A stretch of DNA of 21,516 bases, taken from a virus. Every line of letters begins with the position of its first letter. Position 1 is the first letter of the stretch. Position numbers and translations under genes: made by a program. The notes under the pieces are model-generated. The model saw only the letters and a program-made list of their open reading frames with translations. It was not told the origin of the DNA and did not search any database. Shown in pieces: positions 2,175-9,328 of this stretch. Where the stretch lies: positions 1 through 21,516 of the IMG/VR virus record IMGVR_UViG_3300006100_000095; one strand, 5' to 3'.

Positions 2175-2405
2175 ATGACAGATGCACAAATCATTGACCT
2201 ATTGGGCAAGCCAGCAAAAGTAGCTAAGTTGTGTGGCGTTTCCGTCCAGGCGGTATGTCAATGGCGTAACAACAACAGTATTCCGTTTGGTCACTTGACC
2301 ACAATGGCCGCCACAATTGAAAAAGAATCCCATGGTTTAGTCACTAGAAAAACGTTGTTTCCAAACAACTGGTGGTTAATTTGGCCTGAACTAAAAAATA
2401 TTTGA
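2175..2405 (+). CDS. Cro/YdaS-like helix-turn-helix regulator
   Basis: A 76-residue DNA-binding protein. Residues about 13-33 form a helix-turn-helix (VAKLCGVSVQAVCQWRNN) followed by IPFGHLTTMAATIE, and then the VTRKTLFPNNWWLIWPEL end typical of P22-Cro/YdaS-family proteins, where the family carries a conserved 'vTr.dLrPd' segment. These proteins act as early transcription switches in lambdoid phages. The ribosome binding site GAGG lies eight bases before the ATG. Immediately upstream is the palindrome cluster it probably binds, and downstream follow the non-coding island and the replication genes. No CI-type repressor is visible in the window. Confidence 0.8.
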   Translation: MTDAQIIDLLGKPAKVAKLCGVSVQAVCQWRNNNSIPFGHLTTMAATIEKESHGLVTRKTLFPNNWWLIWPELKNI

Positions 2406-2410
2406 TGTAA

Positions 2411-2615
2411 ACTTGCTGTCCGTTCTTAGCTGGGGATTCACCACCACCAGCGGCTAAGACGAAAGTGCTACTGGGGGAATAAAGGATGTAACAGCACACA
2501 AGTCGGTGGCGAAGCTAGTGCCGATTCCTTGAACGACTGGCGGGTTCTGTGGCTCCGAACAGGTAAAACAGTTGAAGGCGAACCAGGTGGGCTAGGTTCG
2601 TCCACCAAACGGTAA
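2411..2615 (+). ncRNA. Candidate structured non-coding RNA or replication-origin element
   Basis: This gene-free stretch is GC-rich compared with what follows: by hand count 108 of 200 bases are G or C in 2411-2610, against 27 of 100 in 2611-2710. It reads as a chain of hairpins: TCTTAGC 2424-2430 with GCTAAGA 2453-2459; GTGCT 2465-2469 with AGCAC 2493-2497; AGTCGG 2501-2506 with CCGATT 2521-2526; ACTG 2536-2539 with CAGT 2569-2572 enclosing GTTC/GAAC; and a pair of overlapping hairpins at 2577-2606. There is no open reading frame of note. It lies between the Cro-like gene and the replication-domain gene. It may be a small RNA, a long 5' leader or an origin; the family is not one I recognise and the strand is assumed. 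Confidence 0.42.
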
Positions 2616-2714
2616 TGTAGTTTTAATACAACATAATAAAATATCTATACTTCTAAATAAATCTTTAGTATGATTCAAGTACGGTTATGTGACCGTGAAT
2701 GAAAAGGACTAAAA
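2616..2714 (+). promoter_or_regulatory. AT-rich leader of the replication gene
   Basis: A sharply AT-rich stretch between the hairpin island and the replication gene. It contains a TATGAT hexamer (2669-2674) that could be a -10, though no convincing -35 accompanies it, and a small inverted repeat ACGGT-N6-ACCGT (2681-2696) 18 bases before the ATG. AAAGGA precedes the start codon at a good distance. An AT-rich segment next to a structured element and a replication gene is also what an origin unwinding region would look like. Confidence 0.3.
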
Positions 2715-3089
2715 ATGTTTGAACAGTTTTGGAAGTTGTACCCACGCAAGGTAGCTAAAAAAGCCGCACAAACCGCATTTCAACGGCTTTCTAAAGATGA
2801 CCAAGAAAAATGTGTTGAATCAATTGAACAACACGTTGCATACTGGAAGTTAAAAGATACCGCAACAGAATTTATTCCCCACGCAAGTAGTTGGATTAAT
2901 GGTTTACGGTTCCTTGACGAATTGGACATGACACCAAAAGAAATGAAGCGCCCAGCATTGCCTTGGTATAGTAATGATGAATTAACTTTGGCTAAAGGCC
3001 GTGAACTAGGATTAAATGCGTATGCCGGCGAATCAATGGCCCAGTATAGACAGCGAATCAGCCAAGCTATTGGAAAGGTTCAGGTATGA
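2715..3089 (+). CDS. Stand-alone phage replication-protein domain
   Basis: A 124-residue protein that begins directly with FEQFWKLYPRKVAKKAAQ and continues to FIPHASSWINGLRFLDE. This is the conserved module usually found at the C-terminus of phage replication initiation (O-type) proteins. The last third (WYSNDELTLAKGRELGLNA, then GESMAQYRQRI) matches the tail that often follows it. The usual N-terminal winged-helix DNA-binding part is absent and the upstream 300 bases are non-coding, so this is a minimal version, not an obvious truncation. AAAGGAC with good spacing precedes the ATG. Role inferred: origin recognition or helicase-loader recruitment. Confidence 0.65.
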   Translation: MFEQFWKLYPRKVAKKAAQTAFQRLSKDDQEKCVESIEQHVAYWKLKDTATEFIPHASSWINGLRFLDELDMTPKEMKRPALPWYSNDELTLAKGRELGLNAYAGESMAQYRQRISQAIGKVQV

Positions 3090-7747: not shown

Positions 7748-9328
7748 ATGCCTGATTTATCTGACCTTCTAAATTCTGCCATTAATTATGATGGCACCAC
7801 GTCTTTGCAAGATATTGCTAATACGGTCAGTAAACTTCCTGAAAACGTTGCCAGATTTGTTACAAATCCACAAGCATTTACACAGTTGTTTGGAAACAAC
7901 AGTATGCCCCAAGCCACAGGATTTGCCGCTGGTGCAACAGGACTTTCACCACAAAGTCCATACGGCGGGGGCGTATTAAATCCTAAAAATGCTGGATATG
8001 AAGAAGGTTATCAACAAGGCGAACCAGTAGCTATTGCGGCTAACTTTGCCCCATTTGTTAAGGGTAAACCCGTAGGTTTAAGCATGATTGGCCCTGAATC
8101 CGCTACATGGAACAGGGAAATGGCTTTTAATGCTGGAAAAATGGAAGCCAAAGGCGCAACACCACAGCAAATACATGAAACAACTGGCATGGTTAGGGGT
8201 CTTGATAACCAATGGCGTCAAGAAATAAGTGATTATTATTCAAAAATGAAAGGCGAAAACGATTTTGCTGATACTTTTCGCCGTGGTGGTTTAAATGGTA
8301 TATGGGCTAAAGATAAAGTAACAGTTAAAGACGTTTTAGACCATCCAGCTTTATTTGAATCATATCCACATTTGGGTGATATTACTGTTGAAACTCATAA
8401 AGCAGATACGCCAGTTAAAGGTTCTTATAAACAGTCTAAAAATACTATTACTGTTAGGGAAGATTTAAACCCTGAAGAAGCTAAATCTACGCTATTACAT
8501 GAATTAACCCATGCTGTTCAAGCAAAAGAAGGTTGGAATCGGGGTGCCAATTATTCCCAAGAAGTGCAAAAAGCACAAGCCCAAAAAGAAGCTTTAATGC
8601 CAGACATTATTAAGTTAAATGAAAAAATGTCAGATGCTAGTAAATCTGGCGACAATGAAAGATATAGATATTTAATGCACCAGCGGGATGCTTTAGTTGA
8701 TAAATATTTAGTAGCAAAACCTGAAGATATTGGGTATGAAAATTATAGATTGCATGGTGGGGAAGCTGAAGCTAGATTAGTGCAAGCAAGGCGTAATTTA
8801 AAACCTGAAGAATTGGGAAAACACTTTCCATACCAAGAAAGTTCTTTTTACGGTTTAGATATTGACCCTGACAAAGCAATTATTACTTCTGAACATCCAT
8901 CTACAACAAACATACCAAGCCAAGAATATGATTATCGGGGTACCCATAAGGCCGCATATAAAACCGATGATGGTACAACTGCACCAGGGCATGAATTAAA
9001 TAAAACTTACCCTTCTGATGTGTATGGACCTAATGGGCATAAGTATTACGGGATGGGCGACCAAATGGATAAAGATACCTTGACTATTATGAAAGCCGCC
9101 AAAGGTAAACCAGACCATCCAATTACTGTTTATCGTGCTGTACCGGCAGAACACGCTGGTGAAGATATACACCCTGGCGATTGGGTAACACCAAACTTAG
9201 ATTATGCTGAAAAACATGGGCAATATTTTGACAATGGTTATCATATTCTTGAAAAGACTGTGCCAGCCAAGCATATTTGGACTGATGCTAATTCACTTCA
9301 TGAATTTGGTTACGACCCTACAGATTAG
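7748..9328 (+). CDS. Polyvalent protein: HExxH peptidase-like plus ADP-ribosyltransferase-like domains
   Basis: A 526-residue multidomain protein. Residues 1-100 are low-complexity and look like a flexible entry segment. Residues 110-165 (LSMIGPESATWN, GMVRGLDNQWRQEI) match a module found in large polyvalent phage proteins. Residues 230-345 hold a peptidase-like zinc centre, STLLHELTHAVQAKEGWNRG (His251, His255) with HGGEAEAR (Glu339) as likely third ligand. Residues 395-526 resemble an ADP-ribosyltransferase fold: ITVYRAVP (Arg463), GDWVTPNLDYAEKHG (Thr481) and NSLHEFGYDP (Glu519), an R-S/T-E-type set. It may be injected or act on host proteins; that is inference. Ribosome binding is weak at the chosen ATG. 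Confidence 0.72.
   Translation: MPDLSDLLNSAINYDGTTSLQDIANTVSKLPENVARFVTNPQAFTQLFGNNSMPQATGFAAGATGLSPQSPYGGGVLNPKNAGYEEGYQQGEPVAIAANFAPFVKGKPVGLSMIGPESATWNREMAFNAGKMEAKGATPQQIHETTGMVRGLDNQWRQEISDYYSKMKGENDFADTFRRGGLNGIWAKDKVTVKDVLDHPALFESYPHLGDITVETHKADTPVKGSYKQSKNTITVREDLNPEEAKSTLLHELTHAVQAKEGWNRGANYSQEVQKAQAQKEALMPDIIKLNEKMSDASKSGDNERYRYLMHQRDALVDKYLVAKPEDIGYENYRLHGGEAEARLVQARRNLKPEELGKHFPYQESSFYGLDIDPDKAIITSEHPSTTNIPSQEYDYRGTHKAAYKTDDGTTAPGHELNKTYPSDVYGPNGHKYYGMGDQMDKDTLTIMKAAKGKPDHPITVYRAVPAEHAGEDIHPGDWVTPNLDYAEKHGQYFDNGYHILEKTVPAKHIWTDANSLHEFGYDPTD

What the first reader, a model, noticed from the sequence alone, without database searches (positions are those of the whole stretch)
2411..2615. 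GC-rich hairpin chain between Cro-like and replication genes: candidate new phage RNA or origin
Seen: no gene, 108 G+C in 200 bases (2411-2610), dropping to 27 in the next 100, and at least five consecutive hairpins with 4-8 pair stems. Inference: such a composition jump in an AT-leaning phage indicates selection for structure, either as a small RNA, a long leader controlling replication-gene expression, or a replication origin. I do not recognise it as any standard family (not a tRNA, tmRNA, 6S or RNase P pattern).
Basis: partly seen in the sequence, partly recalled or inferred. Interest (0 to 1): 0.8.

Follow-up and report, generated by a model that had tools for sequence, protein, structure and literature searches.

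The report
Known phage RNA, fuller fold
A GC-rich stretch between a phage repressor-type gene and its replication gene is a real, deeply conserved folded RNA that public databases already list under a placeholder name (Betaproteobacteria-1 RNA, function unknown), but the listed model lacks its last third and its knots, and the RNA travels with phage DNA-replication genes.

Summary
Observation confirmed: 2411-2610 has 108 G+C, the next 100 bases 27, no conserved frame, and five hairpin stems. The claim that it matches no known family is wrong: 2423-2545(+) matches Rfam RF02932, Betaproteobacteria-1 RNA, at 89 bits (cut-off 49). New here: the RNA is ~200 nt (2417-2616); the Rfam model stops 70 nt short and lacks three pseudoknot helices. 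In 68 diverse relatives, mostly phages of Burkholderiales, covariation is strong (score 0.48, shuffled 0.19; 571 two-sided changes, shuffled 213), and G-U outnumbers A-C three to one, so the plus strand folds as RNA. The 3' third carries a phage-specific 5-12 nt word twice, ~50 nt apart; its sequence differs between phages but matches within each. Wherever replication genes were recognised (45 of 78 relatives) the RNA lies on their strand, before or after them, in at least three unrelated replication modules. It has no terminator of its own and abuts its upstream gene in many phages, so I read it as part of the early/replication-operon transcript, most likely acting in cis. That role is inferred; antitermination and origin tests gave no support. 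Many relatives carry a second structured RNA, absent from Rfam, with its own promoter, directly upstream.

The parts
2417..2616 (+). Full structured RNA (extended RF02932)
   Evidence: Covariance model R1 built here, 160.1 bits over all 196 positions (the window was one of 68 training sequences); alignment
2423..2545 (+). Part covered by Rfam RF02932, Betaproteobacteria-1 RNA
   Evidence: 89.3 bits, gathering score 49.4, model 1-120/120
2424..2459 (+). Hairpin P1: 2424-2430 with 2453-2459
   Evidence: Covarying; 59% of cells paired on the alignment, which is poor in this part
2447..2474 (+). Pseudoknot PK1 joining P1 loop and P2 loop: 2447-2450 with 2471-2474; not in the Rfam structure
   Evidence: Three of its four pairs 98% paired, the fourth 81%; C-G to U-A and A-U to G-C changes
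2465..2497 (+). Hairpin P2: 2465-2469 with 2493-2497
   Evidence: 91% of cells paired, all five pairs with two-sided changes
2482..2530 (+). Pseudoknot PK2, P2 loop to P5 loop: 2482-2486 with 2526-2530; not in the Rfam structure
   Evidence: 87% of cells paired, all five pairs with two-sided changes
2503..2524 (+). Pseudoknot helix P4: 2503-2506 with 2521-2524, interlocked with P5; not in the Rfam structure
   Evidence: 97% of cells paired, strong two-sided changes on the two variable pairs
2508..2514 (+). Invariant unpaired GGCGAAG
   Evidence: Invariant in all 68 aligned sequences; six of the seven bases were fixed by the search patterns, so invariance is partly by selection
2515..2540 (+). 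Hairpin P5: 2515-2519 with 2536-2540, conserved U-G wobble
   Evidence: 98.5% of cells paired; U-G 53, C-G 10 at one pair
2546..2572 (+). Hairpin P6: 2546-2550 with 2568-2572 (U-U at the outermost pair in this phage), beyond the Rfam model
   Evidence: Covariation
2579..2600 (+). Hairpin P7: 2579-2584 with 2595-2600, beyond the Rfam model
   Evidence: 78% of cells paired, four of six pairs with two-sided changes
2543..2566 (+). Direct-repeat copy 1 (GGTTCTGTGGCTCCGAACAGGTAA)
   Evidence: Identity covariation with copy 2; own versus cross shared word 6.85 versus 4.34 nt, z 18.9
2595..2616 (+). Direct-repeat copy 2 (GGTTCGTCCACCAAACGGTAAT)
   Evidence: As copy 1
2175..2405 (+). Cro-like gene just upstream
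   Evidence: PF14549 P22_Cro, at the curated cut-off; phrog_35
2715..3089 (+). Replication-initiation-type gene downstream (124 aa)
   Evidence: phrog_270, E 3.9e-19, matching only positions 179-272 of 383

Best explanation
This is a member of Rfam RF02932: a ~200-nt, multiply pseudoknotted non-coding RNA made from the plus strand as part of the early/replication-operon transcript of a P22-like podovirus, probably of a Burkholderiales host. Shown: family membership, plus-strand folding, the 3' extension, the pseudoknots, the paired direct-repeat words, co-orientation with replication genes. Inferred: because it abuts its upstream gene, has no terminator of its own and always lies on the strand of the replication genes, it works in cis on that transcript (on the transcribing polymerase, or on processing/stability of the mRNA). 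The invariant core would be the recognition centre, and the two matching words two sites for one phage-specific partner. Family identity is near certain (0.97); the confidence given below is for the cis role.
For: Rfam match; full-length model match to 48 sources incl. phage AP1, which was not in the training set; covariation incl. pseudoknots; G-U 255 versus A-C 79 cells, so the plus strand folds; all 45 loci with a recognised replication gene have it on the RNA's strand; the RNA starts within ~10 nt of the upstream stop codon in the window and many relatives; in relatives with a longer gap a promoter lies upstream on the same strand; no intrinsic terminator seen at the 3' end.
Against: Replication genes lie upstream as often as downstream (14 versus 15 loci), so no particular downstream gene is controlled; intrinsic terminators downstream are no more common than in shuffles (24 versus 23), so antitermination is unsupported; no transcript data; some chromosomal copies (L123, L125, L148) are not beside replication initiators.
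Confidence: 0.45

Rival explanations
1. Trans-acting RNA: the element is cut out of the operon transcript and works as a stable RNA or RNA-protein particle, for example against a host factor; the two matching words would be processing or partner sites.
For: Complex conserved fold; position relative to neighbours is free; one copy per phage record in nearly all cases.
Against: No terminator or constant promoter of its own in most loci; always on the operon's strand; no complement of the repeated word elsewhere in the L120 phage.
Confidence: 0.3
2. Replication origin or primer element: the transcript folds at, and primes or opens, the phage origin.
For: 29 of 38 well-flanked loci have a replication gene within 3.5 kb, on either side, in unrelated modules; a Thauera copy is about 1 kb from a plasmid-type Replicase gene; an AT-rich stretch follows in the window.
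Against: No GC-skew switch at the RNA where genes run the same way on both sides; in several phages a gene starts 2-13 nt after the RNA, leaving no AT-rich spacer.
Confidence: 0.18
3. Ligand-binding riboswitch or translational leader of the next gene.
For: In some phages the 3' repeat lies just before a start codon (L010, L086, L078, L120).
Against: The next gene is not conserved, the distance ranges from 2 to over 500 nt, and in half of the loci the replication genes precede the RNA.
Confidence: 0.07

Closest known systems
Rfam RF02932, Betaproteobacteria-1 RNA
   Same: Sequence and P1, P2, P5 structure over the whole 120-position model, 89 bits
   Different: The conserved RNA is ~200 nt: 70 nt more at the 3' end with P6, P7 and the doubled word, and three pseudoknot helices absent from the model. 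I could not read the original description, so it may already hold some of this.
HK022-type put antitermination RNAs (own knowledge; no paper held)
   Same: Structured RNA in a phage early operon just after cro
   Different: Much larger and pseudoknotted; no enrichment of downstream terminators; also found after replication genes; one copy, not one per early operon
C4 / P4-CI antisense immunity RNAs (RF01695, RF03163)
   Same: A short word present twice in a phage early transcript, as in C4 target repeats (own knowledge)
   Different: No antisense partner of the word found. C4 itself occurs separately in prophage L009, 6 kb from this RNA.

Membership tests
RF02932 Betaproteobacteria-1 RNA | Covariance-model score above the curated gathering cut-off (49.4) | tested here: met
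   89.3 bits, full model length
RF02932 Betaproteobacteria-1 RNA | Consensus stems P1, P2, P5 kept | tested here: met
   Alignment to the Rfam consensus; covariation
RF02932 Betaproteobacteria-1 RNA | Distribution in Betaproteobacteria and their phages | tested here: met
   Eight of nine genome contigs are Betaproteobacteria and the ninth has no model match; Acidovorax phage AP1
put-type antitermination RNA | Terminators downstream that must be read through | tested here: inconclusive
   Intrinsic terminators 24 observed, 23 in shuffles; Rho-dependent ones not testable
put-type antitermination RNA | Makes RNA polymerase pass terminators | not testable with these tools
   Needs a reporter assay
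C4-type antisense system | Antisense RNA complementary to the repeated words, and a C4 model match | tested here: not met
   No C4 match in the window; no complement of the word in L120
Bidirectional replication origin | GC-skew switch independent of gene direction | tested here: not met
   Skew +0.05 on both sides in the ParB-helicase-primase-RNA group; weak test

The most novel reading that the evidence does not exclude
The RNA, often with the unlisted promoter-headed leader RNA directly upstream, is the core of an undescribed RNA-based control or initiation module of phage replication in Burkholderiales phages. Its two matching phage-specific words would be alternately bound by one partner, giving each phage its own specificity, and the module would be shuffled among unrelated replication systems.
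Probability: 0.18. Interest if true: 0.8.

Novelty: new member of a known kind. Interest (0 to 1): 0.42.

Why it matters
The family is catalogued, as far as I could find, without a known function. The full boundaries, the three pseudoknots, the self-matching variable words and the link to replication modules turn a placeholder entry into a testable object. A revised covariance model, one deletion mutant and one RNA-seq experiment in a Burkholderiales phage such as AP1 would show whether phages use a large structured RNA to run their replication operon.

Tried and rejected
Single-sequence folding (z 0.03): uninformative. BLASTN of the window RNA against phage records: none; only Acidovorax phage AP1 with a relative's RNA; plasmids none. 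Weak RT-2 match (13 bits, cut-off 40): chance. Phaeodactylibacter pattern hit L129: rejected, no covariance-model match in its genome. L145 and L146: weak family matches (33-34 bits, below cut-off), treated as chance. Antitermination by terminator count: no support. Origin by GC skew: no support. Complement or third copy of the repeated word elsewhere: no complement, and only stray third copies of 8-9 nt words. Self-splicing or ribozyme ancestry: considered because of the knotted core, no evidence either way. RNAalifold on the alignment recovers only part of the structure, because pseudoknots cannot be written and the 3' part aligns loosely. Literature searches for the family name: nothing held.

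Full report
WHAT WAS CHECKED. The stated G+C counts are exact (108 in 2411-2610, 27 in 2611-2710; only 0.12% of 200-base stretches of the window are as rich). The stretch lies between a Cro-like gene (2175-2405; P22_Cro at cut-off) and a gene for a replication-initiation-type protein (2715-3089; phrog_270). The window carries a P22-type portal, a major head protein and a terminase, so it is a podovirus-like contig; it is a 21.5-kb virus record.

IDENTITY. Against Rfam 15, 2423-2545(+) matches RF02932, Betaproteobacteria-1 RNA, with 89.3 bits (gathering 49.4) over the whole model, and nothing else in the window reaches threshold.

RELATIVES. Eight of these are Betaproteobacteria; the ninth has no covariance-model match. 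Acidovorax phage AP1 is the only match found among the annotated phage records with the three queries tried. In Burkholderiales genomes the family is rare: 5 of 399 over the cut-off.

FULL EXTENT AND FOLD. The conserved part continues ~70 nt beyond the Rfam model. A covariance model of the whole RNA matches the window at 2417-2616 with 160 bits (the window was in the training set) and matches loci not used for training end to end (AP1 126 bits; L143 and L148 about 65 bits). A search over all column pairs and a count on 68 diverse sequences support five hairpin stems (P1, P2, P5, P6, P7) and three pseudoknot helices absent from Rfam: PK1 (P1 loop to P2 loop), PK2 (P2 loop to P5 loop) and P4 (interlocked with P5). 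Overall covariation is 0.482, against 0.190 in shuffles and about 0.1 when partners are slid. Cells with two-sided changes number 571, against 213. Since the structure was derived from an earlier alignment of overlapping sequences, the slid control leans in its favour. G-U cells outnumber A-C cells 255 to 79, so the plus strand is the one that folds, as RNA. P1 pairs poorly on this alignment (59%), which I take to be misalignment there.

THE DOUBLED WORD. Positions 2546 and 2598, 2550 and 2601, and 2558, 2561, 2563 with 2608, 2611, 2613 covary as identities, not complements. Most RNAs carry a word of 5-12 nt twice, about 43-61 nt apart, once in the P6 loop and once after P7, while flanking bases (GGCTCC in copy 1, CACC in copy 2 as a rule) stay different. 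In 68 non-redundant RNAs the longest shared word averages 6.85 nt, against 4.34 between RNAs, 18.9 standard deviations off the permutation mean; a control region shows nothing. In the 65-kb phage of L120 the word AACGGGTAAC occurs only in these two places and its complement nowhere. Two sites for one phage-specific partner, or two processing sites, would explain this; gene conversion is less likely because the copies keep their distinct flanks. This is inference.

CONTEXT. Of 78 non-redundant RNAs, 38 have at least 2 kb on both sides. In 29 of these a recognised replication gene lies within 3.5 kb, upstream in 14 and downstream in 15; in all 45 loci with such a gene it is on the RNA's strand. 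The modules are unrelated: cro-RNA-O-like; ParB-helicase-Toprim primase-RNA; RNA-ParB-helicase-primase. A Thauera copy (L126) lies about 1 kb before a plasmid-type Replicase gene (PF03090). Other chromosomal copies (Thauera L125, Azonexus L123, L148) show no replication initiator in the stretch held (by eye). The RNA abuts the upstream stop codon in the window and many relatives, no terminator of its own is apparent, and the next gene starts 2 to over 500 nt later.

MECHANISM. Best supported is a structured element inside the early/replication-operon transcript, acting in cis on that transcript (0.45). A processed trans-acting RNA (0.30) and an origin or primer element (0.18) remain. Two predictions failed to give support: intrinsic terminators are not enriched downstream and GC skew does not switch at the RNA where genes do not diverge. 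A gene-specific riboswitch is unlikely because the downstream gene and the distance to it are not conserved.

A SECOND RNA. In many relatives a sigma-70-like promoter (a -10 of at least 5/6 in 14 of 15 tested leaders, 25% in shuffles) heads a leader directly upstream of this RNA. The leader folds into a 35-40 bp hairpin whose ~7-nt bulge is complementary to the leader's 5' segment, ending in a T-run. It has no Rfam match in the carrier loci scanned. It is absent from the window and was only partly followed up.

VERDICT. The additions here (boundaries, pseudoknots, doubled word, link to replication modules) make the family testable. Interest 0.42.

Noticed in passing
L006, L024, L037, L061, L083, L098, L116, L120, L069, L075, L033, L017 and others: about 80-250 nt upstream of the GGTGGCGAAG motif: A second structured RNA, with no Rfam match where scanned, with its own sigma-70-like promoter: a 35-40 bp hairpin ending in a T-run, whose ~7-nt bulge is complementary to the leader's 5' segment with sequence changing in step (own 5.18 versus 3.97 cross, permutation maximum 4.42). 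Absent from the window.
   Followed up: partly
window 2715-3089: The replication-initiation-type protein matches only positions 179-272 of the 383-position family profile, so it may lack the usual origin-binding N-terminal part.
   Followed up: no
L009 1540-1745: Paraburkholderia prophage region with C4 antisense RNA and, below their cut-offs, isrK and c4-a1b1 matches, 6 kb from the RF02932 RNA.
   Followed up: no
IMGVR_UViG_3300047557_000594 (L035, L044; G016 417 and 35631): Two RF02932 copies of equal score 35 kb apart on one 44-kb contig with different downstream sequence: second locus or assembly artefact.
   Followed up: no
window 7748-9328: 526-aa protein with a metalloprotease-like stretch and a C-terminal part annotated 'ParB C-terminal domain' between early and structural genes.
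   Followed up: no
L125 (Thauera), L148: Divergent chromosomal copies sit beside genes that look like SOS-mutagenesis polymerases (UmuC-like in L125; DnaE2-like upstream of L148), judged by eye from the sequence. Shared insertion site or regulation not tested.
   Followed up: no
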